IMG/VR virus record: IMGVR_UViG_3300034073_001026
Span: 1-23,423 of that record
Direction: 5' to 3' (one strand)
Source: a virus
Length of the DNA stretch: 23,423 nucleotides
Numbering within the stretch: the first letter of the stretch is position 1; the number at the start of each line of letters is the position of its first letter. Below are positions 1,339 through 23,423 of the stretch, piece by piece. Under the pieces are notes generated by a model. It was not told the origin of the DNA. It ran no database searches and worked only from the letters and a program-made list of their open reading frames with translations. The position numbers and the translations under genes were made by a program.

Positions 1339-3690
1339 TCACGAGATCTCCTCGAGCCTGACGCGCTCGCCGGCCACGACGACAGGGATCTCTCTGCCTG
1401 TCCTCGGATCGTGGATCTTTTCGACGGCAAGCACGCCGGTCTTTTTCCATTCCCGCAGAATGGAATTGACCCTGCCTTTTACCTTCTTGTCGCTGATGTC
1501 CCAATCAAGCCATTCAGCTAGCTTAATTCCGATCCAATCGCCTGATTGCGAATTGTCCCTGAGCGGCTTACCTGCTTCCACGGCGGCGGCGGCGATGTCC
1601 TGCATCTTGCGTGCGTCGGCGGCCTTCACCCCGTCGAATGCGTTTGGCATCTCGAACGGAACGCAGACGCCGATCCACTCGCCGTTGTCGATCTCGACGG
1701 AGATCATGCGACGGTAGACGGCTGCGTGGGCCGGCGGCGCGAGGTTTGCTTTGCCGTCGTCCACGCGGAAGATGCTGCGTGCGTCGGCCTCGTCGACACC
1801 GAGCTTGAGGGCGTCGTCCTCGGCTACACGATTGACGACGCGGGCCGCGCGGGCTGCGCCGATGAGTGCGCCGGCTCCTCTGATGCTGTCCACGCTGGCG
1901 TCATCGCCGTTGCCTTTGCGGACATGGTGAACGAGCATGACGGAGCAGTCGCCATCGCGTGCGAGCTTTCGCAGCATGGCGACGACGGCCTGCACGGCTC
2001 CGTTGGAGTTCTCGTTGACGAGGTGAACGCTGACGAAAGGGTCGAAGATGACGACGCCGATGTCGTGCTTCTTCACGCGCTGGATCATGGCGTCGAGCAT
2101 GGCGTCATTCTTCAGCAGCCCGTCGCGGTTCTCGGCGGCGAGGGTCAGCTCGAAGGTGTCTTCGCCGTCCATGAAGAGCTTGCCGGCTATGTCTGCGGGC
2201 TTGATGCCGTAATGCTTCATGGCGGCGATCGTGCGCATTTGCATCTCGGCTATCGGATCTTCGAGGTTCACGAGCCAGACGTTGGCCTGCTCTTTGACCT
2301 TGGTGCCGAGCAGCTCGCGGCCTGTTGCGATGGCGAGTGCTTCGACGGTGACGAGGCATGTCTTCCCGATGCCGCCTGCGGATGCGAGGACGCTGACGTA
2401 GTGCCGGATGTAGTCGAAGCCGTAGACCCAGCGTCGGCGGGGGATGCTGGCTGCGTCGAAGCGGGTGAAGGGCGTCGGCCATGCGTCGGGATCGGGCGGC
2501 GGGTCGGCGGCCGGGATGTCGTCGGGGATGTCGTCGGGCGTGTCGAAGGCGTCCTCGTCGGCAGCCTCTGGCGCTGCCGGAGCGGCGGCATCTTCCTCGA
2601 CGGGTGCCGACACCGTGTCGAAATCGTCGAGGCTGTCAGCGGGCTGCGCAGGGGCTGGCAGGAGGGTTTGCGCGCGCAGCTCGGCCCCATATGCGCGGAC
2701 GGCTGCCCTCATGTCGCCGCCGTGTTCGAAGAAGCAGAAGAGGTCGAAGGCGTCACCCCAGGTGAAAGAGTGCGGGCCGATCGTCTTCGCCCTGCCCAGC
2801 CCGTTGGCTGCGTCGGTCGAAGAGAGGCTGACCCAGTGGCTGCCGTAGTCACGGGTGGCGAAGGAGGCCGACGTTTGCAGCGGCGATCGATAGTGTGAGG
2901 AGGATCCGCGCCGGGTGTATCCGTACTTGTCGAGCAAGTCGGCGATGGTGTGGCGGGAGTTGAACTCGTCGACCGGGTCTGCTTCCTGCGGGCGCTCGAG
3001 GCGACGGGCTGCCCGCTCTCGTTCACGGGCCTGCCGATCGGCGGCTGCCTGCGCGATGGCCTCCTGCTCGCGCTGTTGGCGGGCGTGCATCTCCATCTCG
3101 ATGCGGCTGCCTTCGAGGTCGAAGGTTCGATCCCTGACGACCATCGTGTCGTAGTAGACGGGCGCGCCGCTGGGCTTGCGGCGGTCTGGCGGGATGTTGG
3201 GCAGATAGATGGGCTGCCCGCAGCGTGCCAGCGCGGGGTCGCATTGGATGCCGCGCTTTGCCATGAGGTCGAAGAGTGTGGCCTGGGTGTCCTCGTATTC
3301 CGCGCCTGTCAGGATCTGCTTGATCGGGATGAGGACGCGCCATTTCTGCTCGTTCTTGCTGGCGCTGGATGACGAGTAGACGATGACGGCGCAGCGGCCT
3401 GTAATCTCGTGGACGGCATCGACGACGGCCGGCTTGTCATGGTTGCCTGTGTCGATGTCGAGGGCGAGCATGCGGTATTGACCGCGTTGGCGCTGGGCCT
3501 CGTGCGATCTGCCGTCGTGCTGTCTGTAGGTAGACGGGATGATGAAATCCGACTCGAGCTTCTCGACGGCGGTCGGCGCGCGCACGCGGTTGATGATGCC
3601 GAAGAAATCGATGCCGTCGTATTCCGCGCCGGGCTGCTCGATGAGTGTGTTGTAGGCCCCGTGGGCCAGCAGAAACATGGGCTTTTGCAT
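1339..3690 (-). CDS. Bifunctional DNA primase / RepA-type helicase
   Basis: The 783-residue protein probably unwinds and primes phage DNA in the cytoplasm. Numbering counts from a GTG one codon upstream of the chosen ATG. Residues 1-200 look like a phage primase/polymerase N-terminus (LALDIDTGNHD at 76-86, then VIVYSSSSASKNEQKWRVL). Residues 245-340 resemble the degenerate DNA-binding module of phage primases (GDAFDLFCFFEHGGD). Residues 345-405 are an acidic Ala/Pro linker. Residues 425-660 form a RepA-like AAA ATPase with Walker A ASAGGIGKT (437-445), Walker B VVIFD (547-551) and the VMLVHHVRKG motif (585-594). Residues 700-784 look like a winged helix. The start has no strong ribosome binding site and may be coupled to a tiny upstream frame. 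Confidence 0.88.
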   Translation of the reverse strand: MQKPMFLLAHGAYNTLIEQPGAEYDGIDFFGIINRVRAPTAVEKLESDFIIPSTYRQHDGRSHEAQRQRGQYRMLALDIDTGNHDKPAVVDAVHEITGRCAVIVYSSSSASKNEQKWRVLIPIKQILTGAEYEDTQATLFDLMAKRGIQCDPALARCGQPIYLPNIPPDRRKPSGAPVYYDTMVVRDRTFDLEGSRIEMEMHARQQREQEAIAQAAADRQARERERAARRLERPQEADPVDEFNSRHTIADLLDKYGYTRRGSSSHYRSPLQTSASFATRDYGSHWVSLSSTDAANGLGRAKTIGPHSFTWGDAFDLFCFFEHGGDMRAAVRAYGAELRAQTLLPAPAQPADSLDDFDTVSAPVEEDAAAPAAPEAADEDAFDTPDDIPDDIPAADPPPDPDAWPTPFTRFDAASIPRRRWVYGFDYIRHYVSVLASAGGIGKTCLVTVEALAIATGRELLGTKVKEQANVWLVNLEDPIAEMQMRTIAAMKHYGIKPADIAGKLFMDGEDTFELTLAAENRDGLLKNDAMLDAMIQRVKKHDIGVVIFDPFVSVHLVNENSNGAVQAVVAMLRKLARDGDCSVMLVHHVRKGNGDDASVDSIRGAGALIGAARAARVVNRVAEDDALKLGVDEADARSIFRVDDGKANLAPPAHAAVYRRMISVEIDNGEWIGVCVPFEMPNAFDGVKAADARKMQDIAAAAVEAGKPLRDNSQSGDWIGIKLAEWLDWDISDKKVKGRVNSILREWKKTGVLAVEKIHDPRTGREIPVVVAGERVRLEEIS

Positions 3691-3746
3691 CACGCCGGCC
3701 TATGTGTAGTGTTGCCAGCGCGTGCCGCATACTCTATCTTGTGCAT
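3690..3746 (-). CDS. Possible 18-residue leader peptide before primase
   Basis: A short reverse-strand frame (MHKIEYAARAGNTTHRPA) has GGGAGAG upstream of its ATG. Its TGA overlaps the primase ATG (TGATG). Because the primase lacks a good ribosome binding site, this frame could couple its translation. A second tiny frame (3700-3768, 22 codons, GAGGT seven bases upstream) competes for the same stretch. Both could be chance. Confidence 0.25.
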   Translation of the reverse strand: MHKIEYAARAGNTTHRPA

Positions 3747-3785: not shown

Positions 3786-3826
3786 GACCCCGGCCGCGAC
3801 CTCCCCGCGACCGGGGTCTCTTTTTT
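3786..3826 (+). terminator. Rho-independent terminator pointing rightward
   Basis: GACCCCGG (3786-3793) and CGCG (3795-3798) pair with CGCG (3806-3809) and CCGGGGTC (3811-3818), with one C/A mismatch and a seven-base loop. TCTTTTTT follows at 3819-3826. The T tract exists only on the plus strand, yet the genes on both sides are leftward. It would stop antisense transcription, or act as a stabilising 3' hairpin for leftward mRNA just after the SSB stop codon. Confidence 0.75.
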
Positions 3827-4485
3827 CAGAAGGGGATGTCGTCCCCCAGCACGTCTTTGATGGGCTTGGCAGGCTCTTGCACGCGGGGCGCAGGGGCTGG
3901 CGCGGCGGCCGGCCCGAAGTCGTCGAGGCTGCCAGACGGGCTGCCGTCGCTGTCGAAATCGTCCAGCCCGCCGTCGCCGTAGATCGGCTGCGTCACCTGC
4001 ACGGTGTCGAGGATCATGCTGATGCCGCCCTTGCCGTCGGGGTCGACGGCCGGGAAGGCCCATGCCCGAATGCTGCCGACCGAGCCTGACCAGATGGCGA
4101 GATCCGCCAGCGGTGCCTTCGATGCGTCGATCACCTTCGGCGCGGTGTTGGCGGTGCCGTCGCCTTTGGTCCCCGTGCGCTTGGCCGTGAACGTGACGCT
4201 CTGCCCGTCCTCGGCCTTCTTCATGCCGAAGATCTTGCTGAACGCGGGCAGCTTCGGGTTCCGGCCGCGGCATCCTTCGTAGTGCTGCTTGAGCTGGCCG
4301 TGCAGTGCGCGTGCGTCTTCGGTCGGCATGGACCATGCGACAGACCATGCAGCGCCCTGCGCCGTGGGCTGGCACGGCTCGCTGGCCTGCTTGCCGGTGT
4401 TGAACCGGTATGTCTTGTCGAGCTTGGGGTAAACGAGCTTCACCCCTTTCACGAGTACTTTGAAGAAGTCATCGTTGTTCGCCAT
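3826..4485 (-). CDS. Single-stranded DNA-binding protein with SSB-type tail
   Basis: The 219-residue protein should coat single-stranded DNA during phage replication and recombination. Residues 8-170 look like the OB-fold single-stranded DNA-binding proteins of phages (T7 gp2.5-like architecture). Residues 171-205 are an acidic and Ala/Pro-rich linker with two LDDF motifs. The last residues, GDDIPF (214-219), match the C-terminal tip of bacterial SSB that docks repair and replication proteins. The ribosome binding site AAGGAGAG is part of a 28-bp repeat also found before the next upstream gene. It lies between the alpha-CTD and primase genes. The family assignment rests on fold-level resemblance and the tail. 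Confidence 0.85.
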   Translation of the reverse strand: MANNDDFFKVLVKGVKLVYPKLDKTYRFNTGKQASEPCQPTAQGAAWSVAWSMPTEDARALHGQLKQHYEGCRGRNPKLPAFSKIFGMKKAEDGQSVTFTAKRTGTKGDGTANTAPKVIDASKAPLADLAIWSGSVGSIRAWAFPAVDPDGKGGISMILDTVQVTQPIYGDGGLDDFDSDGSPSGSLDDFGPAAAPAPAPRVQEPAKPIKDVLGDDIPF

Positions 4486-4506
4486 AGATCTCTCCTTTGC
4501 TGGCGG
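4479..4506. repeat. 28-bp direct repeat, copy 1 (translation start of SSB)
   Basis: This is identical to 4766-4793. On the coding (reverse) strand it carries GGAGAG, six bases, the ATG and the first Ala codon. The two copies lie 287 bp apart. Confidence 0.9.
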
Positions 4507-4511
4507 GGTTG

Positions 4512-4772
4512 TCAGATGTGTTCCGGGTTGCTGGCCTGCGGCGGCCAGTCCTCGAGCTGCATGCCGAGGTGCAGGCCCATGTCGGCGAGTCTTTCCTTGA
4601 TCTGCATTAGGGATCTGTGCCCGAAATTTGGATGCAGCATCAGTTGCCTCTCAGTCTTTTGGACCAGATCGCCGATGTAAACGACGCCCTCGTTCTTCAG
4701 GCAGTTGGCAGCGCGGCATGGCAGATCAAGCTCGCTGGCCTTCTTCATCAGGGCTGGAATGTCGCTCGCCAT
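4512..4772 (-). CDS. Stand-alone RNA polymerase alpha subunit C-terminal domain
   Basis: The 86-residue protein is almost entirely an alpha-CTD, the helix-hairpin-helix module of RpoA that binds UP elements and activators. [20 protein letters not shown] (20-39) and [20 protein letters not shown] (48-67) align with the RpoA CTD of proteobacteria, ending in the typical [10 protein letters not shown] (69-78). Counterparts of the E. coli DNA-contact residues R265, N268 and C269 are R20, N23 and C24; G296 and S299 are G51 and S54, and K298 is a conservative Arg (R53). The RpoA N-terminal dimerisation domain is absent. It may bind phage promoters, compete with host alpha-CTD, or act as a helix-hairpin-helix factor in replication. 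Family identity is very likely; the role is unknown. Confidence 0.93.
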
Positions 4773-4793
4773 AGATCTCTCCTTTGCTGGCGG
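4766..4793. repeat. 28-bp direct repeat, copy 2 (translation start of alpha-CTD gene)
   Basis: This is identical to 4479-4506. It covers the ribosome binding site, ATG and Ala codon of the alpha-CTD gene. It suggests duplication of a translation-start cassette when one of the two genes was inserted. Confidence 0.9.
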
Positions 4794-4796
4794 TCT

Positions 4797-5582
4797 TCAG
4801 AAATCTTCGGGGTCGTCGGCGGTCATCCAGCCGGGCTGGCTGATCATGTTGACCTCGGGCCATCCGGTTGTGTAGTCGCCTTTGGCCTGCGCGTCACGGA
4901 TCTTCAGCAGTGTCTGCGTGATGATCTGCTGGCAGGTGTCGAGGTAGTCGGCATCGATCTCGTGGATGCAGACTGCGTATGGAGCGTCCTTCTCGATCGC
5001 GAAGAAGAAGAACCTGTCGGCCTCGTGGCCGGCGTTCTGTAGCACGCGCATGTAGAAGGCGGCTTGGATCGCGTAGCCATACTGGTGGACATCGCGCGAG
5101 AACTGCCGCGGGCTGGCCGACGTGCAGGTCTTCAGATCGACGACGAGGGCGTCGGCCTCGATGTAGATGTCGGGCCGGCATTTGATCTCGACGCCCGTGA
5201 TCCGATCGGTGGCGAACACGCTGCCCTCGGTGATCCGCGGGCGATCCATCCATTCGGGTGCCTGCACGAGGGCGGCATGCGCGATGTTCTTCGCGAGATC
5301 GTATTCGCCCTGCGGCAGCAGGATGTAGCCGTCGAGGTCGGCGGCCAGCTTGGCATCCTTCCACGCGGTGCCACGGCGGTCGCCGGGTCCGCAGCGGACG
5401 AGATCCTTCTCCGGCTCGAGGACGAGGGCATGCACCGCCGACCCGAGGTCGAAGGCTGCCGACTCCTTGCGAGGGGCGAGCTGCCAGTGGCGCAGGGATT
5501 TCAGATAGACGGTCTTCACATCCGAGCTGCTGATCGCAGGGTGTGCGTGGTAGGCGTCGTTCGACAGGTCTGTGCGGATCAT
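4797..5582 (-). CDS. PD-(D/E)XK exonuclease, RecE/exonuclease VIII-like
   Basis: The 261-residue protein is a likely 5'-3' exonuclease that resects DNA ends for recombination. The N-terminal LSNDAYHAHPAISSSD and the GSAVHALVLEP segment (H51) are typical of the phage exonuclease VIII-like (DUF3799) family. Catalytic positions are visible at CRPD (D138) and VVDLKT (D149, K151), followed by QYGYAIQAAFYMRVL. The frame stays open far upstream (to 6029), but that part is the resolvase gene in another frame. The ATG at 5582 overlaps the resolvase stop as ATGA and has GGGGGAAGAG upstream. No RecT-like annealing protein is seen beside it, so the SSB may take that part. Confidence 0.87.
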   Translation of the reverse strand: MIRTDLSNDAYHAHPAISSSDVKTVYLKSLRHWQLAPRKESAAFDLGSAVHALVLEPEKDLVRCGPGDRRGTAWKDAKLAADLDGYILLPQGEYDLAKNIAHAALVQAPEWMDRPRITEGSVFATDRITGVEIKCRPDIYIEADALVVDLKTCTSASPRQFSRDVHQYGYAIQAAFYMRVLQNAGHEADRFFFFAIEKDAPYAVCIHEIDADYLDTCQQIITQTLLKIRDAQAKGDYTTGWPEVNMISQPGWMTADDPEDF

Positions 5583-6013
5583 CTCTTCCCCCATCCATAG
5601 AGTGCAATGAGTGCTGCCTCGGCTCGCCCATCGTGCTTGGCGAGTTTCCACTGGTCGGCATCGTCGGGCCACGTCATCGACGCGAGCTGCCTGCTGGCTG
5701 CCTTGTCGGCGGACAGGCGCAGGGCCTTCTTCCATGCCGACGGCTCGACGAATCGTGTCGGCACGCCGGCGAAGGCGAGGCAGGCTTGCAGGATGCCGAA
5801 GCCCTCGGCGATGGTGGCGACATGTCGCACCCCGATCTTCGGCGGGTAGAAGGGGCGCTCGACCCATGCGACGGACACCTTGCCGATCGCCGACAGCAGC
5901 TCGCGCCGGCCGTCGATTGTGTCTGGCATGTCGTAGGTGGTTACCTGCCATTCGGCCACGTCGAGAGCGGCGAAAGCGCCCTGTTTGCCGGGGTCTATGC
6001 CGAGTATCTTCAT
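5579..6013 (-). CDS. RuvC-like Holliday junction resolvase
   Basis: The 144-residue protein has the RNase H-fold pattern of RuvC-type resolvases: GIDPG at 5-9 (D7), VERP (E52), a Lys/Arg-rich middle (SADKAASRQLA) and HDGRAEAALIALYG at the C-terminus (D128, E132). It should cleave branched DNA made by replication and recombination, and could help debranch DNA before packaging. Its length is slightly short of bacterial RuvC but usual for phage forms. It overlaps both neighbours by ATGA, so it is translationally coupled between the HTH regulator and the exonuclease. Confidence 0.9.
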   Translation of the reverse strand: MKILGIDPGKQGAFAALDVAEWQVTTYDMPDTIDGRRELLSAIGKVSVAWVERPFYPPKIGVRHVATIAEGFGILQACLAFAGVPTRFVEPSAWKKALRLSADKAASRQLASMTWPDDADQWKLAKHDGRAEAALIALYGWGKR

Positions 6014-6186
6014 GCGGTCTGCCTCTCAACGTAAGCCGTCAGGGCGGCGAGATCCCGCTCGGTTGCTTCCTGCTTGTTCGCCATCAGCCGCCAGAGGCGG
6101 TCGTATTTCATCCCTGTCGCCTGGGCGACGGCCGTGAGCCGCCGGTCGCCGAGCCGTTCTCGCAGTGCTTGCATCGTGTAGAGCAT
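6010..6186 (-). CDS. Small Cro-like HTH regulator at the head of the replication operon
   Basis: The 58-residue protein carries a helix-turn-helix at about residues 17-36 (LTAVAQATGMKYDRLWRLMA) flanked by short helices, the size of phage Cro-like proteins. The ATG at 6186 has GGAGGG seven bases upstream; longer upstream frames lack a ribosome binding site. It is the first leftward gene after the divergent control region, with the early operon on the other side. It could therefore repress one or both promoters, with tandem TTGACTG as a possible operator. Its stop overlaps the resolvase ATG. Confidence 0.82.
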   Translation of the reverse strand: MLYTMQALRERLGDRRLTAVAQATGMKYDRLWRLMANKQEATERDLAALTAYVERQTA

Positions 6187-6279
6187 GGTTGGCCCTCCTT
6201 CGACGCGGACCCTAACCGCATGTCGCGCGGCTGGCAACAGGGCGCGTGAGATTATTTTCGCGGGATGTGTAATTGACTG

Positions 6280-6307
6280 TTGACTGTGTCGAGGGAGTGC
6301 TTATGCT
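6280..6307 (+). promoter_or_regulatory. Rightward early promoter with tandem TTGACTG
   Basis: TTGACT (6280-6285) and TATGCT (6302-6307) are spaced by 16 bases and match sigma70 -35 and -10 boxes at 5 of 6 and 4 of 6 positions. A second TTGACT lies exactly 7 bp upstream (6273-6278), giving a tandem TTGACTG that may be an operator. Transcription would start near 6314 and feed the early operon. The opposite strand has no comparably good promoter. Confidence 0.6.
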
Positions 6308-6320
6308 GTCTGACGGCAAC

Positions 6321-14411: not shown

Positions 14412-14645
14412 TTACTCCAGTTGGCTGCGGATGACATCAAGCATGATCTGCGCCTTGCGTTGCTCCAACACAGACGAAGCAAGAAGGTTTTGCAGATGCT
14501 CCTTGAAGGGCTGTAGTTCTGCGTCGTCTCCGATTTTGACGATAGCAAGTCGGAAATTGTCGATGTTCACCTGATACTCAGTCACCTCCTTAATGCGAGC
14601 ATCAAGGGCGGCAGTCAGGATTTCTTTTTTGTAGTCGGGGTTCAT
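14412..14645 (-). CDS. Hypothetical helical protein, 77 aa
   Basis: I do not recognise this protein. It is fully helical with a Glu/Leu/Gln-rich coiled-coil character (EVTEYQVNIDNFRLAIVKIG, EHLQNLLASSVLEQRKAQIM). It sits between the propeller gene and the tail chaperone. The upstream stop and this ATG are adjacent (TAAATG). GC content is visibly lower than in most of the window, like the propeller gene, so both may have arrived together. Confidence 0.7.
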   Translation of the reverse strand: MNPDYKKEILTAALDARIKEVTEYQVNIDNFRLAIVKIGDDAELQPFKEHLQNLLASSVLEQRKAQIMLDVIRSQLE

Positions 14646-15680: not shown

Positions 15681-17899
15681 CACGCATCTCCCACGCGAGC
15701 GCCGTAAACCTGACTTGATACTTTCCACAACGTGATGACTGTATATCCGCTCGTGTTCAATGTAGGTGCAACACCGCCATCAGTTTTCCACACAACACCA
15801 GAGCCACCCCATGTAGCATCCGTCCATGTCAGCGTGTAGGCCGTGCCATCGTCCACCATCAATGTCACCGCCTCACCATCAGCAAAGTTCGTGGCCTTCG
15901 GTGTGCGGGATGCGCCCAGCGTGATGAGCTGAATGGAGCCGTTGCCGGGATCGATCTCGAAGGCGGCACCATCGGAGATGGTGTAAACATCTTCGAGGAT
16001 CGTGCCAGTGATGGCCGGATCAACCAGAGTATTGCTGAACGCTAGATTGCCAGAGCCATCCGTTTTCAAGAACTGGTTGGCCGTGCCATCAGCCGCAGGC
16101 AGCGTCAGAGTGAAGCTCGACGACACCGTGCCGGGCGCTTGCAGGGCGACATACTGCCCGCCGGTGGTGTCTTGCAACCGCAGATCGCCGGTCGCCGTGA
16201 TGTCAACCTGGGCGAAGGTTACGTTGTCCGTGCTGCCGACGCCTAGATTGTCTCGTGCCGTAGCCGCATCAGCAACATCCGACAGATTGTTCGATGCCGA
16301 CAGAAATCCCGATCCCGGCGTGACGCCAGTCTCCCATGCCGACCCGTTGTAGACCTTCAGCAGGTTTGACGAGGTGTTGTAGAACAGGTCGCCCGTGTCG
16401 AGGCTGGTGACAGGATCGGTATTCCCGACGCGATATTTTTCCGCGAAGGATGTCACGCCCGCCACATTCGCGGCCACCGTCGTCACGTCCGAGCTAATCC
16501 CGGCGACGGTCGTCACAGCCGCAGAGATGCCAGCCACGGTCGTCACGTTGGCGCTGTTGCCTGCGACCGTCGTGACGTTGGCAGAGATGCCAGCCACGGT
16601 GGTTACGTTCGCAGAGATGCCAGCCACGGTGGTGACATTCGACGAGATGCCCGCGACGGTCGTCACATCAGCCGAGATCCCGGCAACCGTGGACACATCC
16701 GCGATGGCAGTCGCCACCGTGCCGATGTCTGTCGCATCGCCAGCAACCGCCGTCACATCCGCCGAGATGCCAGCCACCGTCGAAACATCCGCCGCGATGC
16801 CTGCCACGGTGCCGATGGTGTCGGAGCCTGCCAGATCCGCAGCCACCGTCCCGATGTCAGTCGCATCCGCAGCCACGGCGGTCACATCCGAGTCAATCGC
16901 GGCAACCGCGCTCACATCAGCGGCGATCCCTGCCACGGTGCCGATGTCCGTTGCGTCAGCCGCAACCGCCGTCACATCGCTGTCGATGGCCGCAACTGCG
17001 CTCACATCCGCCGCGATGCCCGCCACCGTGTCAATGTTTGTCTGCTCTGCCGGGGACGGTGCCGTGAACTTCCACGTCGTGTTGCCGAGATCGTAGACCT
17101 TCAGCCGGTTGTCGGTCGTGTTCCAGTAGAGCGCGCCGTCGATCAGCGTGTTGCCGTCATTGTCCGTAGCCGGATCGCTGTTCTTCGCGCCGAGGTAGCG
17201 GTCGTCGAACTGGTCGTAGAGCGTCGTGAACGCGCTGACATCCAGCAACAGATCCCACTTGGCGACATCAGCATTCGTCGAGATCGGCAGCGTGCCGGTC
17301 GAGGTGTGCGCCGTGTTACAGAAGTAGAGGTTGTCGTTGCCACCATCCTTCACGATGTCGCGCTGGTTGTAGGCGGTGCTGGCAGCCCAGTTGCCGCGAT
17401 AGGTGCCAAGCTCCTGCGCGATGCTGAGATCGCCAGCACTGTCAAATGCGAAGATCTTGTTGGCACGGGATGCGGCAGAGATCGTGAACTCGGTGCTGGC
17501 GATGGTGTTTGTCTTCGACGCCTTGATCGAGCGGTTCAACGTCTCCTGCTGTTGCTGCACCATGAACGTCAGCTTGTCGAGCGCGGCCTCCACGCTGTCA
17601 GCCGGGAACGGATCGTTGGGCACGATGTCCAACTCTTGGATCAGATCCTGCTCGCGGATGATGACCAGCGTCTCGCCCGTGGCAGGGGCCGTGAGCATGG
17701 TGACGTTGCCGCCGCCCGCGTTGCCGACACCGCTGACAGTGTAGTGCGTCGTGATCGTCTTCGTCGTCTCGGTGCCGTTGGCAGCCCGGATGATGACCGT
17801 CAGATCGTCCTCGTCGAAGATCTTGAACGTGTAAGCGAACACGGTCGTCGAGCTGTTGCCCGCGTAGCTGACCTTGTTGGTGCTGCTCGATACGGTCAT
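15680..17899 (-). CDS. Tail fibre with T7 gp17-like N-terminus
   Basis: The 739-residue protein should be a trimeric tail fibre. Residues 1-130 match the T7-type tail fibre attachment domain (NSSTTVFAYTFKIFDEDDLT, TGETLVIIREQDLIQELDIV). Residues 165-285 hold small beta modules (DGALYWNTTDNRLKVYD). Residues 291-480 are about 19 decapeptide repeats of the TTVAGISANV type, probably a long shaft. The C-terminal 250 residues are beta-rich (NNLSDVADAATARDNLGVGS) and end in a possible tip. It overlaps the internal virion protein gene by ATGA and the propeller gene by one base, so the two adhesion proteins are made from coupled cistrons. Confidence 0.9.
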   Translation of the reverse strand: MTVSSSTNKVSYAGNSSTTVFAYTFKIFDEDDLTVIIRAANGTETTKTITTHYTVSGVGNAGGGNVTMLTAPATGETLVIIREQDLIQELDIVPNDPFPADSVEAALDKLTFMVQQQQETLNRSIKASKTNTIASTEFTISAASRANKIFAFDSAGDLSIAQELGTYRGNWAASTAYNQRDIVKDGGNDNLYFCNTAHTSTGTLPISTNADVAKWDLLLDVSAFTTLYDQFDDRYLGAKNSDPATDNDGNTLIDGALYWNTTDNRLKVYDLGNTTWKFTAPSPAEQTNIDTVAGIAADVSAVAAIDSDVTAVAADATDIGTVAGIAADVSAVAAIDSDVTAVAADATDIGTVAADLAGSDTIGTVAGIAADVSTVAGISADVTAVAGDATDIGTVATAIADVSTVAGISADVTTVAGISSNVTTVAGISANVTTVAGISANVTTVAGNSANVTTVAGISAAVTTVAGISSDVTTVAANVAGVTSFAEKYRVGNTDPVTSLDTGDLFYNTSSNLLKVYNGSAWETGVTPGSGFLSASNNLSDVADAATARDNLGVGSTDNVTFAQVDITATGDLRLQDTTGGQYVALQAPGTVSSSFTLTLPAADGTANQFLKTDGSGNLAFSNTLVDPAITGTILEDVYTISDGAAFEIDPGNGSIQLITLGASRTPKATNFADGEAVTLMVDDGTAYTLTWTDATWGGSGVVWKTDGGVAPTLNTSGYTVITLWKVSSQVYGARVGDA
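16460..17029 (-). repeat. Decapeptide repeat region of the tail fibre shaft
   Basis: About 19 repeats of 30 bp encode xVTTVAGISA-type units. Residues 291-320 and 321-350 are identical 30-residue blocks, that is, a 90-bp unit in tandem. The region is a natural hot spot for length variation. Confidence 0.85.
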
Positions 17900-20800
17900 C
17901 TCATCTCACCTCTCATGCGGGCCTGCGCCACCGCCCGGTCACGAATAGCCGCCGCCAAATTAGCATGCTCGGGCATGTTCAGCAAAACCTGAAATGCCTC
18001 GTTCATATAGGCTTGCTCGATGCTGGCGATGTAGCTGACGCGCTCGATGTCCGTCAGCCTGGTGTATTCCCGGTTGGCCCGCGAGCCGGGCGTCATAACC
18101 GCCTCCAGCGCCTCGCGGAATGTCAGCGAGCCGAAGCCGCGGATCGGGCGGGCCGGCGGCTCGACCTTTCCAAGCCGCACCCAATCGGCGATCGCGCCCG
18201 CCGTCAGCCGCACGCCGTCCTTCGCCTCCGGGTTATTGAGCGGCCACTTGCGCGTCATCGATGTCAGCCGCATCAGTTCCATCTCGACAGGGCCAGGCTC
18301 TTCTCCAGGCCGGATGCGGATGCCCGAGAAATTGTTGAACACCGCCAAGCCGGGGTTCGTATCAAGGCGAACATCAGCCTCGCCCATCACGTTGCCCAGC
18401 GTGTCGTAGACGACGGCATTCCGATCGCGCTCGTCGCGGAAGAAGCTATCCTTGGATTGCAGGGCGTCGAGCGTGCTGGCAAACTTCCTGATCGCGTCCG
18501 TCGTGCTGCCCTTCACCATGCCGACCATCGCGTAGTCGGGCGAGCCGTCGGGCAGCGCATAGACGTACGACCCGTCCTCGTTGCGCGTCAAGATGTCGTC
18601 CATCGTGTAGTATTGCAGATCCGGGTCTGGCTTCGTCACCGTGGGGTCGAAGGCACGCTGGATGGCCCGCTGGAGCGAGCTGACGGGCGACGGCACACCG
18701 ACGATGGTCGCCGCCTCTGCCGGGCTGCGGAACAGGCTGGTGAAGTCTGCGCGCCCGGCGGCGGCCGCCTCAAGCATGCTGACGACATCGCCCAAGCCGG
18801 CCAGCATGGGCAGCTCTTTGTAGTAGTTCGCCGTCGCCCCCAAGGCAGCCGTCGCCAGATTGCTGGATGCTTCCGGGTCGCGGGTGATCGTCATGCGCTG
18901 CACCGTGTCCGCCACGATGCCGATCGCCCCGCCGACAGGCTCGATGCCCTGATAGCTGATGTACGTCAGCGGACCATTCGGCCGCCCGAATGCATCGTAG
19001 AGCGGGAGGTAATCTCCGTCCTTGTCCTTCGGAAACCCGTCGCCCCGTACGACAAAGCTGTAGGGCTGCCAGCCTTGCGCCATCAGCCGCTCGCGCAGCT
19101 TCTGATCCTGCGGCATGGCCCCCGTGATCCTGCCGTCTCTGACGCCCTCGGTGATGACATAGGCTCCAGCCGCGGCCACCGTGGCGCGGGCCAGGGCGAG
19201 CTGCTTCTGGCGGGGCGTTGCCAGCTCGAACGGGATGCCGAGGATCTCCGTCGTCCGCATGATGCTGTTGGTCGGCGCGGTCGCAAACGGCAGCAGGAAC
19301 CGCCCGACGAAATTGCGCTGGAGAGCGCCGGTCACTTTGCCAAACGCGCCGAGATCGCTCTGCATCGTGTCGTATTTGGCCTTCACGTCGAGATCGTCGG
19401 CCATCGAGCGGGGGTCGAGCAGCATCATGCCGGCCTCGTCCAGCGCCTGCTCCTGCGTCTTGCCCTCGTTCAGCGCCGCCTGATACCGGCGGTTGACCGC
19501 GACGTAATGCTCGCCGCGCTGCGAGATCGTCTTCACGAACTCGTCAGCCCCGAGCAGCAGGCGGAACGGGATGCGCACCGATCGGCCAAGCGTGTTGATC
19601 GAATGCCCGAAGAAGTTGTCGGCTTGGCTCGAGATAGCGCCATAGGTTTCGACATCGAGCTTCGACGCGCTCGACGGCAGCTCCGTCCTGAAGGCGATTG
19701 ATGCCGCACGCAAAGCGTCCTTGAAACTATCCGACCAGCCCTTCATGCGCAGGAGTGCGTCCTGCATGTAGACCTGATCCTCGGGGATCGGGCCGGTTCT
19801 CAGCACCCGCTGCGTCTGCCGGCTGATCGCCCCATACATGCCCGCGATCATTTCGACAGGGAGCTGATAGGCCATGAACGATGCGGTGCCGAGGATGTTG
19901 CGGACCTGAGACGCGGGCGAACTCAGCAGGCCGGCAAGGTAAAGCTCGTGGACGACCTCTTTCGTCTTCGACATCCAGCCGCGGCGGGCCATCTCGTTGA
20001 CGCCCTTGAGGCCGTTCAGCTTCTGCACACGCAACAGGCGGTCGGCCAGCGCCTCGGTGCTTTCGCCCATGCCGGCGTCCGAGAGCATGCGCTGCGCTTC
20101 CTCAGACATGCGCTTGGCGTCCAACTCGCCGGCCACTTGGATCTTCATCGACTGCATGGCGCGAGCCATTTCAGTCTGCGATCCCTTCACCTGTAGCTGG
20201 ATGCCAGCATGGATCGCGAGCTGGCGGCGGAAGGCAAGCCGATCGGCGGCCGTCGCTTGGCCCGACTTGACGGTGACCGCGAGATTGTTGAGCCGCTGCG
20301 CGCTCTTCACGAGCAGATCACGGGCGGCCAAAAGCGTTTCTGAGTTCAAAGACCCGTCGCCGATCTTGCGGGCCAGTAGTCGGCGGGTCAGCCCCAGCTC
20401 GTCGGCCGCCGCGATGGCTGCATCCCGTGTCGTCTCTTCGTTCGACCTCACGCCGCGGGTGATCTGTAATTGCTGGTCCTTGTACGTCTCGCCGAGCGCG
20501 GTGATCGTCTTCTTCACGTCGTCGGGCGTGTTGAGATAGTCGAAGTTGAAATCGCCGCCGTCCTGCAAGCTCTTGATGGAGCCGTCGAGGTTGTCGAGCA
20601 TGCGATCGGTCATCGCCTCGTCGGCCAGCCCGGCCTCCGGCCCGAAGCCCTGCGCTTCCGCCGTGACACCGCGGCGAGATTGCGCGATCACGTCCGTCGC
20701 CAGCAAGCCGGCCTCTTCCTGCGCCTCTGCGGCCGCGTCCTGCGCGCTCTTCAGGATGTCCATGCCCTCAGGGCGAACAGCCTGGAAGCCCCGCTCGCGG

Positions 20801-21117
20801 AACTCCTGCACGCCCGCTGGCGACAGAACCTGCGGCGCGAGGGCTTCCTTCGTTGCCGTTTCGCTGAACTCGCCGGGGGCTTCCACGAGGCCGCGCTCGA
20901 CCGGCGTGGGCACGCGCTCGGCTATCCTCGGCGACGGGCCTGGAACACCTGTCTGCGGCCGGACACGGTTCAGCAGCTCAAGGATGGCCCGCGTGCCGCC
21001 GCCGGCCACACGCATCTCCTGCTCAGGCCCCTTCGCAAACTCCGTCGGCGACCCGACGAGCGAGGCGCGCTGGAGTGCTTCCTGATCTTCCGCGAGTGCC
21101 GTCGGGTCGATAGCCAT
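17896..21117 (-). CDS. Large internal virion protein (ejection protein candidate)
   Basis: The 1073-residue protein is not matched to a named family, but its size, position before the tail fibre, helical Ala/Glu-rich first 380 residues and internal hydrophobic parts are typical of podovirus internal proteins ejected into the host. Hydrophobic or amphipathic stretches lie at about 392-430 (YLAGLLSSPASQVRNILGTA, then SFMAYQLPVEMIAGMYGA) and around the FVGRFLLPFATAPTNSIM segment in the middle. The C-terminal 250 residues are acidic and mixed. No lytic transglycosylase motif is obvious. The start follows AGAGG. Ejection function is inferred from context. Confidence 0.8.
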   Translation of the reverse strand: MAIDPTALAEDQEALQRASLVGSPTEFAKGPEQEMRVAGGGTRAILELLNRVRPQTGVPGPSPRIAERVPTPVERGLVEAPGEFSETATKEALAPQVLSPAGVQEFRERGFQAVRPEGMDILKSAQDAAAEAQEEAGLLATDVIAQSRRGVTAEAQGFGPEAGLADEAMTDRMLDNLDGSIKSLQDGGDFNFDYLNTPDDVKKTITALGETYKDQQLQITRGVRSNEETTRDAAIAAADELGLTRRLLARKIGDGSLNSETLLAARDLLVKSAQRLNNLAVTVKSGQATAADRLAFRRQLAIHAGIQLQVKGSQTEMARAMQSMKIQVAGELDAKRMSEEAQRMLSDAGMGESTEALADRLLRVQKLNGLKGVNEMARRGWMSKTKEVVHELYLAGLLSSPASQVRNILGTASFMAYQLPVEMIAGMYGAISRQTQRVLRTGPIPEDQVYMQDALLRMKGWSDSFKDALRAASIAFRTELPSSASKLDVETYGAISSQADNFFGHSINTLGRSVRIPFRLLLGADEFVKTISQRGEHYVAVNRRYQAALNEGKTQEQALDEAGMMLLDPRSMADDLDVKAKYDTMQSDLGAFGKVTGALQRNFVGRFLLPFATAPTNSIMRTTEILGIPFELATPRQKQLALARATVAAAGAYVITEGVRDGRITGAMPQDQKLRERLMAQGWQPYSFVVRGDGFPKDKDGDYLPLYDAFGRPNGPLTYISYQGIEPVGGAIGIVADTVQRMTITRDPEASSNLATAALGATANYYKELPMLAGLGDVVSMLEAAAAGRADFTSLFRSPAEAATIVGVPSPVSSLQRAIQRAFDPTVTKPDPDLQYYTMDDILTRNEDGSYVYALPDGSPDYAMVGMVKGSTTDAIRKFASTLDALQSKDSFFRDERDRNAVVYDTLGNVMGEADVRLDTNPGLAVFNNFSGIRIRPGEEPGPVEMELMRLTSMTRKWPLNNPEAKDGVRLTAGAIADWVRLGKVEPPARPIRGFGSLTFREALEAVMTPGSRANREYTRLTDIERVSYIASIEQAYMNEAFQVLLNMPEHANLAAAIRDRAVAQARMRGEMR

Positions 21118-21125
21118 GCTTGCCT

Positions 21126-21317
21126 CTATTTCGCCTTGCGGAATTGCTCCGGCAGCTCTTCCTCAAGCTCTGCCCCGAAGACCTCGGGCGGCTCGCCCCA
21201 GTAGGCCAGCTCGATGTAGTTCTCGCGGGTCATGGGGATACCGAACTTGCGCATCACCGCCAACACGCCGTCTTCACTGCTGCCAGGTTGGCGGGTTGAT
21301 TCCACCGGCTGCTTCAT
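21126..21317 (-). CDS. Small phage protein, 63 aa, acidic C-terminus
   Basis: The ATG at 21317 has AGGAGG seven bases upstream and lies 44 bp inside the preceding gene. The protein has a short helix-turn pattern (EDGVLAVMRKFGIPMTRENY) followed by IELAYWGEPPEVFGAELEEE and a Lys-rich end. The ENYIELAYWG..PP..AELE pattern recurs in phages between internal virion genes; its role is unknown, perhaps an assembly factor. Confidence 0.8.
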   Translation of the reverse strand: MKQPVESTRQPGSSEDGVLAVMRKFGIPMTRENYIELAYWGEPPEVFGAELEEELPEQFRKAK

Positions 21318-23423
21318 TGACCATCCTCCTCGCTTCGTCGATCTCGATCTCACCGTTGCGGTATCTGTTCCAGATGCCGTCGATTATCTGCGCGTTTCTT
21401 TCTGTCTTGAACGTGTCCGGGAACAACCCGCGCACGGCCTCCCAGGTGATGGACTGCATCTGCCGTGGCAATATACCACGCTCCTGCGCCGCGCGTCGAT
21501 ACGCTTCGGCATAGAGGCCGTAGTTTCCAGACACCCCGCTGACAGACGATCCCTTCGTCGTGCCGCGGCCGGCGACGGTGATGTTCTTGAAATTGTGGTC
21601 TACTTCCAAAGAGTTGCCAGAGAGCGGGCGAAGCAGGCCGGCGGCCACCGCATGCGTGTCGATCGTCACGTCGCCATATGGCGAATTGGGGTCGTAGATG
21701 TTGTTGTAGAAATTGCGAACCTTGTGGCGCTCGCCCATCAGCCCCGAGATCGTGCGCACGTCGCCGTTCGACTCGATCGAGCCGATGGCCTTGCCGATCT
21801 CGTTCAGCGACCCCCATGCGACCCGCGATGGCGAGCCGTCTAGGTTCGTGGCGACATCTAGGAAATCGCCCTCTGGCGACACGATGCGGTAATCCGGCGA
21901 CGTGTAGGTCTGATCGTGCAGCCGGACGAACAGGGCGCGCAGGGTGTTCTGCACCGCTGGATCGGGGTCTGTGATCTGGTCGTAGGTTTTCCCGCGGATC
22001 ACGTCGAGCAGCGGCTCATACTGCGGCTTGTTCAGCGACGGGATGTTGCGGAATGTCTGCTCCATCTCAGGCGTGAAGGCGAGCGGCGTGCCGCCCTTGG
22101 GCTTGACGACATCAAGCACCCGCTGCGCTAGGCTGACGTTCTGATACCAATCCTTCTGCGGCGAAAGCGCGGCCAGCGCCCCAGCGATCGAGGTGTCGGG
22201 GACGTTGTATTCCTGCGACCAGCGATCGGTGATGTTGCGCGCGCCGTCATACCAGAGCTGACTGCGCTGGCGCGTAGCTGCCGGCACCTGATCGTGCAGA
22301 TAGAGCAGGTTGTCTTTGACATGCGTGATGAACTGCTCGGCGGTTTCATCCACCGATGCGGCTGGGTTGGGCCGCATGTTGGGATAGTCGCGGGTGATGT
22401 TGACGTTGAAATCGTAGACCTTCGGATCTCTCTTCAACTCATCCAGGCCGACGATCAGCTCGCCCGTGTAGGGGTCTTCTGTCGCCTTGGCTGCGGTCGG
22501 GAAACGGGTAGAGATCCGCCCCGGCAGGCCGCCTAGCGTTGGCACTGCCGCCGCCTGCTCGCCCTCGCCCATCAACCGGCCCGCAGCGGCCAGCGCACGA
22601 TCGACAACCGGGCCGACAGGGTTGCTGTAGAGCGTGCTGCCTTCGCGGGCGATGCGGGCCTGAGCTTCCTGCCCCAGCTCTTCGATCGTCTGCCGGATGC
22701 CGGGGATCGCCCCCCTCATAGCGCGCCCGCCGGCCGCCGTCAGCGGGATGGCCTCGAGGACTGACAGGCCGGCCTCCAGCGCGCCCAGAGCGGCCGTCAC
22801 GTTGTCGCCGCTATCCAGACCGCGGGTGAATGTCTGATAGCCCTCCTGGCCGCCGTAGACGGCCCCCAGAGGCGTCAGGTCGGCCAGCCCTATGCCGAGA
22901 TCTCGCGTGGCATTCGGGTTGCCCACGACGCTCTCAGCGAGCTGTCGGGCGAAGAACGGATCTGCTCCGACACCCTCGAAGATCTGGCGCAGGACATCTG
23001 CGTGCCCTTCGCGGATGGTCAGATCGCGCGGCTCAATCGTGCCCGTGCCGGCGGCGGCAACCTCTTCCGGCGTCATCTGCGGGCGGGCTGCACCCGGCGG
23101 CAGGGCCGGCGCAATGCCAGCCGCTTGCAACTCAGGCTCCGTGAAGCCGGCAGCCAAGTAGTCCTCGTACACGCGCGGCATCTCTTGCTCGAATGCGCGG
23201 ATCTCGGCCGTCCGATCCGGCTGCGTCCAGGCGGCGGTCGCCTCATCAAAAACTTGATCCGGCGGCTGCTTGCCGACATCCTGCGGCGGCACGGGGTCGA
23301 CGACCTTCTCCTCGCCGATCTTCGTGTAGCCGCCCGACGGCAGGCGCATCAACACGTTGTTGACGCCGCGCTGCTTGTCGTACTGGATCTGCTTGTTTTT
23401 GAGCTGCTCCGGCTTGATGCCCG
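21274..23423 (-). CDS. Virion-associated protein with DNA-glycosylase-like domain, 5' end missing
   Basis: The frame runs to the right edge without a stop, so the true start is outside; the GTG at 23355 is only an internal codon. Residue numbers count from there. Residues 1-150 are Pro/Glu-rich; 150-270 are helical with Ala/Gly-rich amphipathic stretches typical of internal virion proteins. Residues about 340-670 form a compact domain with IAGALAALSPQKDWYQNVSL (390-409), KVRNFYNNI (545-553) and VTIDTHAVAAGL (563-574). The last motif looks like the catalytic-loop region of HhH-GPD DNA glycosylases (VDTH motif), but the helix-hairpin-helix itself is not evident. It may be an ejected enzyme; its position favours a virion role. 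Confidence 0.78.
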   Translation of the reverse strand, partial: GIKPEQLKNKQIQYDKQRGVNNVLMRLPSGGYTKIGEEKVVDPVPPQDVGKQPPDQVFDEATAAWTQPDRTAEIRAFEQEMPRVYEDYLAAGFTEPELQAAGIAPALPPGAARPQMTPEEVAAAGTGTIEPRDLTIREGHADVLRQIFEGVGADPFFARQLAESVVGNPNATRDLGIGLADLTPLGAVYGGQEGYQTFTRGLDSGDNVTAALGALEAGLSVLEAIPLTAAGGRAMRGAIPGIRQTIEELGQEAQARIAREGSTLYSNPVGPVVDRALAAAGRLMGEGEQAAAVPTLGGLPGRISTRFPTAAKATEDPYTGELIVGLDELKRDPKVYDFNVNITRDYPNMRPNPAASVDETAEQFITHVKDNLLYLHDQVPAATRQRSQLWYDGARNITDRWSQEYNVPDTSIAGALAALSPQKDWYQNVSLAQRVLDVVKPKGGTPLAFTPEMEQTFRNIPSLNKPQYEPLLDVIRGKTYDQITDPDPAVQNTLRALFVRLHDQTYTSPDYRIVSPEGDFLDVATNLDGSPSRVAWGSLNEIGKAIGSIESNGDVRTISGLMGERHKVRNFYNNIYDPNSPYGDVTIDTHAVAAGLLRPLSGNSLEVDHNFKNITVAGRGTTKGSSVSGVSGNYGLYAEAYRRAAQERGILPRQMQSITWEAVRGLFPDTFKTERNAQIIDGIWNRYRNGEIEIDEARRMVNEAAGGINPPTWQQ

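What the first reader, a model, noticed from the sequence alone, without database searches (positions are those of the whole stretch)
4512..4772. Phage-encoded stand-alone RNA polymerase alpha-CTD
Seen: an 86-residue gene that is essentially only the RpoA C-terminal domain, with counterparts of the DNA-contact residues R265, N268, C269, G296 and S299, K298 as Arg, and the terminal LGM..E.WPP. Known: alpha-CTD binds UP elements and activators and is normally tethered to RNA polymerase through the RpoA N-terminal domain, absent here. Inference: the phage may decoy activators, occupy UP elements, recruit host polymerase to phage DNA, or reuse the helix-hairpin-helix in replication, since it sits between SSB and exonuclease genes.
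Basis: partly seen in the sequence, partly recalled or inferred. Interest (0 to 1): 0.88.

Follow-up and report, generated by a model that had tools for sequence, protein, structure and literature searches.

The report
Phage-carried tail of RNA polymerase
This virus of bacteria carries a stolen, free-standing copy of the part of the host's RNA polymerase that grips DNA in front of genes, probably to disturb or redirect host gene reading; other phages carry relatives of it, and no test of what they do was found.

Summary
Window 4512-4772, minus strand, encodes an 86-aa protein that is only an RNA polymerase alpha C-terminal domain (PF03118 E 3.7e-18; the AlphaFold model matches Caulobacter alpha-CTD on AT-rich DNA, Z 13.8). 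It derives from an alphaproteobacterial rpoA: a sister phage (L001, 92-94% identical in the flanking segments) has a 153-aa version that still holds RpoA from about residue 170 on. The gene is an insertion: in six of six related contigs covering the site the exonuclease gene directly precedes the SSB gene, and a 33-nt start-site module is doubled around it. It is not a lone oddity: 106 viral contigs encode alpha-CTD relatives; of the 80 kept none is a full RpoA, R265 is invariant in 60 of 60 distinct proteins, two are sigma-region-4 fusions, and isolates such as Bacillus phage Goe8 have one. Some are already annotated; my searches listed no functional study. Best reading: a trans-acting promoter-DNA binder that uncouples host polymerase from its own alpha-CTD contacts (0.4); recruitment to phage promoters is the main rival.

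The parts
4512..4772 (-). Stand-alone alpha-CTD gene, 86 aa (stop codon included)
4474..4506 (-). 33-nt module (ribosome-binding site, start codon and first codons of the SSB gene), one copy of the direct repeat
   Evidence: (94% identity to the other copy)
4761..4793 (-). Second copy of the 33-nt module, serving the alpha-CTD gene
   Evidence: the core GCCAGCAAAGGAGAGA occurs without mismatch only at these two places in the window
3826..4485 (-). SSB / gp2.5-like ssDNA-binding and annealing protein, directly downstream of the alpha-CTD gene
   Evidence: phrog_112 E 3e-7
4797..5606 (-). Exonuclease VIII-like PDDEXK nuclease, directly upstream in transcription order
   Evidence: phrog_412 E 2.3e-64; PF12684 3.8e-25
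5579..6013 (-). Holliday junction resolvase, next gene upstream on the same strand
   Evidence: phrog_1770 E 7e-25
6010..6237 (-). Small HTH regulator heading this run of genes
   Evidence: phrog_18104 E 2e-6
1339..3693 (-). Primase/helicase-type protein downstream
   Evidence: phrog_906 (DNA polymerase/primase) E 2.2e-42; AAA_25 1e-39

Best explanation
The gene is the C-terminal piece of an alphaproteobacterial rpoA, captured by a phage and cut down to the DNA-binding domain. It lies among the phage's DNA-metabolism genes. The free domain should not enter core RNA polymerase because the assembly domain is missing, but it should still bind the minor groove of AT-rich promoter-upstream DNA and the alpha-CTD partners there (sigma region 4, activators). 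I think it most likely works in trans as a competitor: it occupies UP elements and/or alpha-CTD partners so that the host polymerase loses its own alpha-CTD help at strong host promoters such as rRNA promoters, which frees polymerase for phage genes. Shown: host origin, truncation, insertion, retained DNA-contact residues, purifying selection, absence from related contigs. From established knowledge: the N-terminal domain assembles alpha into polymerase, and isolated alpha-CTD can bind promoter DNA. Inferred: operon structure and timing of expression, sufficient amount, competition in the cell, benefit to the phage.
For: DNA-contact face largely intact here; R265 identical in 60 of 60 distinct viral proteins and in 36 of 36 at <70% core identity, a position outside the search motifs. 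Predicted fold superposes on alpha-CTD bound to AT-rich DNA (9zum, Z 13.8, rmsd 2.2, 79 aligned) and on alpha-CTD with sigma region 4 on UP/-35 DNA (3n97, Z 13.4, rmsd 1.1, 74 aligned). Purifying selection. No T7-type RNA polymerase (PF00940) in the window record or in 8 related contigs, one of 49.8 kb; of all 23 records searched 1 had it (G014) (contigs may be fragments). Precedents, read as passages: isolated B. subtilis alpha-CTD at 5 uM binds promoter DNA (PMC2801614); T4 Alt and ModA modify alpha R265, ModA is highly toxic to E. coli and ModA-modified polymerase cannot use UP elements (PMC2988021); LUZ19 Rac makes the cell cut RpoA in the linker, releasing an 89-aa alpha-CTD, and Rac induction lowers uridine incorporation by 76% (PMC7552054). 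In Bacillus phage Goe8 the alpha-CTD gene is annotated near both genome ends, 1959-2591 and 156106-156738, among small genes; in SPO1-like phages the terminal repeat holds host-takeover genes (recalled, no call).
Against: No functional data. A single alpha-CTD binds DNA weakly (5 uM was used in the EMSA of PMC2801614), so competition needs high expression, which is unknown. The window copy has lost K291 and E302, so its affinity may be lower. The T4 review says that Alt overexpression does not affect E. coli growth and that modification of one alpha raises some T4 early promoters, so loss of alpha-CTD contacts need not shut the host down. Related contigs lack the gene. The same residues would be kept if the protein helped phage promoters instead.
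Confidence: 0.4

Rival explanations
1. Recruiter or co-activator: the free alpha-CTD sits beside sigma region 4 (or a phage regulator) on phage promoters and stabilises the host polymerase there, an activator made of polymerase's own part.
For: Acidic D259/E261-type residues, part of the sigma region 4 contact (recalled), are kept as E/D in the window, and 261 is acidic in 50 of 60 viral proteins. Two of 60 viral proteins fuse a sigma region 4 domain to the alpha-CTD: L039 E 1.1e-8 and L046 E 8.4e-12; L071, L075 and L091 carry weak HTH matches below the Pfam cut-offs.
Against: Such fusions give the alpha-CTD a partner that the bare window protein lacks. No strongly AT-rich tract near these genes: the only stretch with a 20-mer of at least 80% AT in the window is at 14641.
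Confidence: 0.25
2. DNA-metabolism accessory: the helix-hairpin-helix domain was re-used to hold duplex DNA for the exonuclease, annealing protein or resolvase next to it.
For: Position between exonuclease and SSB; exonuclease or annealing genes within two ORFs of the alpha-CTD gene also in L005, L024, L026, L033, L064, L075 and L097. Among 55 near ORFs at least 6 match exonuclease families, against up to 3 of 55 ORFs lying 2 kb or more away (listed families only).
Against: That excess is not significant (p 0.49 for 6 against 3) and the far ORFs are also of the DNA-metabolism kind. Six related contigs have the exonuclease-SSB pair without the gene. Other viral copies lie near portal (L048), ferredoxin (L078) or terminase (L058, L091) genes.
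Confidence: 0.12
3. Passenger: a recently acquired cassette with little or no function, on its way to loss.
For: Present in 2 phages and absent from the site in 6 of 6 related contigs that cover it; N-terminal part lost between L001 and the window; dN/dS 0.36-0.41, higher than in five neighbouring genes (0.04-0.33).
Against: Purifying selection (p 0.0014) at dS 0.55; open frame, own ribosome-binding site, contact residues kept; the tree suggests several captures of the domain by phages.
Confidence: 0.13
4. Decoy for alpha-CTD-directed factors: it soaks up enzymes of rival phages or of host defence that act on alpha-CTD, such as R265 ADP-ribosyltransferases of the Alt/ModA kind.
For: R265, the T4 Alt/ModA target (PMC2988021, passages), is the one residue outside the search motifs that does not vary among 60 viral proteins.
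Against: I looked for no such enzyme here and know of none for this host; R265 is also the DNA-binding residue, so its invariance is explained without this.
Confidence: 0.05

Closest known systems
C-terminal domain of bacterial RpoA (PF03118), nearest to alphaproteobacterial RpoA
   Same: Fold, length and most 265-determinant residues; the sister protein P0002 aligns collinearly with alphaproteobacterial RpoA over its residues 8-148 (52% identity, E 4e-47)
   Different: Not joined to the RpoA N-terminal domain; the two sister phages are only 66% identical to each other; K291L, E302Q and an end ...WPPQxxNPE not seen in the eight host RpoA rows or E. coli
Phage proteins annotated as RNA polymerase alpha C-terminal (uncultured Caudovirales; Rhodococcus phage Finch; Mycobacterium phage Mithril; Bacillus phage Goe8 QDP42789.1)
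   Same: Phage-borne alpha-CTD domain outside rpoA
   Different: Those so named are longer (98-240 aa; Goe8 210 aa); Goe8, V16 and Mazun have other parts attached; the window protein is the bare domain. They were not placed in one tree with it
LUZ19 Rac (phiKMV-like phages)
   Same: Leads to a free alpha-CTD of about the same size (89 aa) in the infected cell (PMC7552054, passages)
   Different: Rac is an acetyltransferase that provokes cleavage of host RpoA; here the domain is encoded directly
T4 Alt / ModA
   Same: Aim at the same alpha-CTD and R265 function (PMC2988021, passages)
   Different: Enzymes that modify host alpha; no such domain in the window protein
Spx-alpha-CTD complex of Bacillus
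   Same: Shows that an isolated alpha-CTD binds promoter DNA and a partner (PMC2801614, passages)
   Different: The isolated domain there was a laboratory construct of the host's own alpha

Membership tests
RNA_pol_A_CTD domain (PF03118) | Match to the family profile above the curated cut-off | tested here: met
   65.4 bits against 23.8
RNA_pol_A_CTD domain (PF03118) | alpha-CTD fold | tested here: met
   AlphaFold2 model, pLDDT 77.7, pTM 0.62; 9zum Z 13.8, rmsd 2.2 over 79; 3n4m Z 13.5, rmsd 0.9 over 73
RNA_pol_A_CTD domain (PF03118) | 265 DNA-binding determinant R265, N268, C269, G296, K298, S299, E302 (list recalled) | tested here: met
   5 of 7 identical, K298 as Arg, E302 as Gln
RNA_pol_A_CTD domain (PF03118) | Binds UP-element DNA | not testable with these tools
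   Needs EMSA or footprinting
RNA polymerase alpha subunit (RpoA) | N-terminal assembly/dimerisation domain | tested here: not met
   86 aa, first residue equivalent to E. coli 246. tblastn with RpoA N-terminal domains finds no place in 91 viral loci except a partial remnant in the one contig seen as L001, L013 and L021 (that match runs a few codons upstream of the start codon)
RNA polymerase alpha subunit (RpoA) | Incorporation into core polymerase | not testable with these tools
   Needs pull-down
Phage alpha-CTD proteins outside rpoA (this work's grouping) | PF03118 domain in a viral contig without full RpoA N-terminal domain and without neighbouring ribosomal genes | tested here: met
   60 of 60 distinct proteins match PF03118; RplQ and RpsK queries hit 0 of 91 viral loci but 80 and 77 of 80 host loci
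General helix-hairpin-helix repair proteins (HHH_5) | Match to HHH profiles | tested here: not met
   The window protein matches only PF03118 at E <= 0.01 (member 1); 11 of the 60 members scanned match HHH_5
Alpha-modifying takeover enzymes (Alt, ModA, Rac) | ADP-ribosyltransferase or acetyltransferase domain | tested here: not met
   Only PF03118 found in the 86 aa

The most novel reading that the evidence does not exclude
Phages have repeatedly captured the host polymerase's alpha-CTD and turned it into a class of trans-acting promoter-binding takeover proteins: bare domains as in the window, a tandem domain, and fusions to sigma region 4 or HTH-like domains. The window and its sister L001 show the step from host rpoA fragment to minimal free alpha-CTD. 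Such proteins would act by mimicking a piece of the polymerase rather than by modifying it.
Probability: 0.35. Interest if true: 0.82.

Novelty: new variant of a known kind. Interest (0 to 1): 0.62.

Why it matters
Phages are known to cut or chemically modify the polymerase's alpha-CTD; carrying a free copy of that same domain would be a third route to the same target, and it seems common: 106 viral contigs matched, the 80 kept among them carry the domain outside a full rpoA, and isolates such as Bacillus phage Goe8 have it. If the free domain rewires transcription, it is a 9.7-kDa tool for turning off UP-element and activator support in trans, and it would make directly testable how much host transcription depends on alpha-CTD during infection. 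The sigma-region-4 fusions hint at minimal promoter-binding factors assembled from polymerase parts.

Tried and rejected
Chance or frame artefact: rejected. Host DNA in viral contigs: rejected for the 91 loci tested; adjacent ribosomal genes and a full RpoA N-terminal domain are absent, with positive controls in 80 of 80 host loci (77 of 80 for RpsK) (the RpsD query was uninformative because it hit no host locus either). Three of the 80 kept proteins (L023, L069, L091) run off the 5' end of their contig. Records filed as phages that carry an annotated rpoA (Salmonella, Acinetobacter) look like host DNA and were not used.

Published precedent in Erythrobacter phage vB_EliS-L02 (PMC9127768, passages): its ORF 40 product, read from OL955261, has no PF03118 match at E <= 1, so I do not count it. 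Passages of PMC7824862, PMC8515928 and PMC8785237 held nothing on a phage-encoded alpha-CTD.

Special link to recombination genes: it first seemed striking, but the control is similar in kind with a non-significant excess. For the near set I gave the scan 55 of the 142 ORFs listed, nearly all of 100 aa or more, picked by hand; the far set took up to two of the longest ORFs per locus. Only the 25 most frequent families are shown for either set, so this is a rough comparison.

Promoter and AT-tract scan: nothing decisive. PHROGs has no family for the window protein.

Tree: only 70 columns, 37 distinct host rows picked by similarity, E. coli the only other cell, bootstrap not settled; I left out 20 of the 60 viral rows as near-duplicates or odd. 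It supports window + L001 as one clade (97/89) and needs 5 changes between virus and cell, at least 3 forced by starred branches, which I read as several captures. An earlier run had lost the host rows through a faulty filter and was discarded.

Ascertainment: P293, N294, G296, K298, S299 and E302 lie inside the motif used to find the relatives, so their constancy is biased; R265, N268 and C269 do not. Plasmids: 81 records match, 20 listed, several annotated as RNA polymerase subunit alpha; lengths not checked, none followed. Alphaproteobacterial chromosomes: 182 of 190 genomes have a PF03118 match and 7 have two; second matches in those 7 are weaker or partial, one in a 77-aa frame (G166) that might be a stand-alone copy; not followed.

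Papers: nine searches on the topic and one on Goe8 listed no functional study of a phage-encoded alpha-CTD. Searches listed only part of their hits, and only open-licence PMC papers are held.

Full report
What is there. The record is a 23,423-base virus contig, 61.8% GC. On its minus strand lies a run of genes: small HTH protein, Holliday junction resolvase, exonuclease VIII-like nuclease, the 86-aa protein in question, gp2.5-like SSB/annealing protein, primase/helicase. The 86-aa protein is an RNA polymerase alpha C-terminal domain and nothing else: Pfam PF03118 at E 3.7e-18 over residues 7-63, PDB alpha subunits from E 7.5e-29, no PHROGs family. Window residue i equals E. coli alpha residue i+245. 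R265, N268, C269, G296 and S299 are identical and K298 is Arg; K291 is Leu and E302 is Gln. The AlphaFold2 model from a 60-sequence alignment (pLDDT 77.7, pTM 0.62) matches Caulobacter alpha-CTD on AT-rich DNA (9zum, Z 13.8, rmsd 2.2, 79 aligned) and E. coli alpha-CTD with sigma region 4 on UP/-35 DNA (3n97, Z 13.4, rmsd 1.1, 74 aligned).

Where it came from. A sister phage contig, L001, has the same order of these genes and 91.8% and 94.5% DNA identity in the two aligned segments on either side (the first of these also covers the alpha-CTD core). Its gene codes for 153 aa. Residues 8-148 of that protein align in one piece with alphaproteobacterial RpoA (52% identity, E 4e-47), and Pfam weakly sees the remnant of the dimerisation domain (RNA_pol_L, E 2.8e-4, 21.0 bits, below its cut-off of 24). 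In E. coli numbering L001 keeps about residue 170 onward with a shortened linker, and the window keeps about 246-250 onward. Both share sequence absent from the eight host RpoA rows and E. coli in the same alignment (SELDLxCR, LMxxKExLADM, WPPQxxNPE), and a tree joins them (97/89). I conclude that they descend from one captured rpoA fragment and that the window version has lost the N-terminal remnant.

How it sits in the phage. The SSB gene was used to find eight viral loci: one is L001's contig, six others hold the site, and one (L020) lacks the upstream part. In six of six the exonuclease gene ends just before the SSB start with nothing between, and 0 of the 7 contigs other than L001's has a PF03118 match, including one of 49.8 kb. 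In the window a 33-nt module with ribosome-binding site and start codon occurs twice, before the alpha-CTD gene and before the SSB gene (94% identity; its 16-nt core has no other match without mismatch). The related contigs without the gene show one such module, and L001's SSB module resembles that of L016. So the gene is an insertion with its own start-site module. A similar arrangement brackets the alpha-CTD gene in L005 (48-nt repeat, 92%) and L033 (21 nt, 86%), but not in L064 or L097; in L005 and L033 an exonuclease of another family lies directly upstream.

Selection. Between window and L001 the last 80 codons differ with dS 0.55 and dN 0.20 (ratio 0.36; 0.41 over all 86), while SSB, exonuclease, resolvase, HTH and 460 primase codons have dS 0.05-0.28 and ratios 0.04-0.33. 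Synonymous change exceeds nonsynonymous per site with p = 0.0014. The alpha-CTD alleles are therefore older than their surroundings, as if the cassette had been exchanged between phages, and the protein is constrained, though less than its neighbours.

A wider family. A profile of six phage sequences found 106 viral contigs with relatives, of which 80 were kept; these give 59 distinct proteins, 60 with the window's. All 60 match PF03118. None of the 80 is a full RpoA: queries with RpoA N-terminal domains hit only the L001 contig among 91 viral loci, ribosomal neighbours hit none, while the same queries hit 80 of 80 (RplQ, N-terminal domains) and 77 of 80 (RpsK) host loci. R265 is identical in 60 of 60, and in 36 of 36 after reduction to <70% core identity; N268 in 48 and C269 in 45 of 60; these positions lie outside the search motifs. 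V287 and R317, part of the activator-facing 287 determinant (recalled), are not conserved. The attached parts vary: two proteins carry a sigma region 4 domain above the Pfam cut-off (L039 E 1.1e-8; L046 E 8.4e-12), one has two alpha-CTD stretches (L048), several have weak HTH matches. Named phage isolates have such proteins too: Bacillus phage Goe8 (210 aa, PF03118 4.3e-22, annotated near both genome ends), Ruegeria phage V16 (288 aa, 1.2e-10) and Microbacterium phage Mazun (141 aa, 1.7e-13). BFVD lists phage proteins already named RNA polymerase alpha C-terminal. So the kind is annotated but, by the searches listed under Tried and rejected, I found no functional description.

What it most likely does. 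The domain should not join core polymerase without the N-terminal assembly domain (established knowledge). It should still bind DNA: isolated B. subtilis alpha-CTD does so at 5 uM (PMC2801614, passages). Phages already interfere at this point: T4 Alt and ModA modify R265, with ModA toxic to the cell but Alt not (PMC2988021, passages), and LUZ19 Rac causes cleavage of RpoA in the linker, releasing an 89-aa alpha-CTD and depriving polymerase of it (PMC7552054, passages). I therefore favour a trans-acting competitor that uncouples host polymerase from UP elements or activators (0.40). Recruitment to phage promoters is next (0.25), supported by the sigma fusions and the kept acidic 259/261 residues. 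Use in DNA metabolism (0.12) is weakened because related contigs lack the gene and because the excess of exonuclease genes beside it is small (at least 6 of 55 near against up to 3 of 55 far, p 0.49). A passenger (0.13) or a decoy for alpha-directed enzymes (0.05) remain possible; 0.05 is left for the unforeseen.

Limits. Two sister sequences only; fragments of genomes; host unknown beyond Alphaproteobacteria by rpoA affinity; no expression data; the tree rests on 70 columns; relatives were found by a motif that includes part of the DNA-binding loop.

Noticed in passing
L039:3476-4180 and L046:3605-4177: Viral proteins that fuse a sigma-70 region 4 domain to an alpha-CTD (E 1.1e-8 and 8.4e-12), the two polymerase parts that lie side by side on promoter DNA. 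A scan with L046 found no further relative.
   Followed up: partly
L048:3569-4276: Viral protein with two alpha-CTD stretches.
   Followed up: no
L071:3800-4618, L075:3713-4225, L091:2-634: Viral proteins with weak HTH matches, below Pfam cut-offs, next to an alpha-CTD.
   Followed up: no
L005:2850-2897 and 3245-3292: 48-nt direct repeat (92%) brackets the alpha-CTD gene, so that the exonuclease and alpha-CTD proteins end in the same ten residues.
   Followed up: partly
L236:1072-1704 (Bacillus phage Goe8): Phage isolate with an alpha-CTD protein annotated near both genome ends, 1959-2591 and 156106-156738; a workable test system.
   Followed up: partly
L099:41542-42063 (Erythrobacter phage vB_EliS-L02): Annotated and published as an RNA polymerase alpha C-terminal domain protein, but no PF03118 match at E <= 1; probably a wrong label.
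   Followed up: yes
phages collection: AFYI01000003, AGRM01000003, CAKLQH020000003, CAKLQF020000004: Records filed as phages that hold an annotated host-type rpoA; likely host DNA.
   Followed up: no
window 17896-21117 and 21274-23355: Two large proteins, one like an internal virion protein (phrog_6651, E 3.7e-15), one with DUF7178 (E 1.1e-25).
   Followed up: no
window 6238-6310: Divergent intergenic region with a TTGACT-16-TATGCT match on the + strand; the natural place to test for an effect of the alpha-CTD protein.
   Followed up: no
G166:C9:319097-319234: Weak second PF03118 match (26.5 bits) in a 77-aa frame of an alphaproteobacterial genome, possibly a stand-alone copy in a chromosome or prophage.
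   Followed up: no
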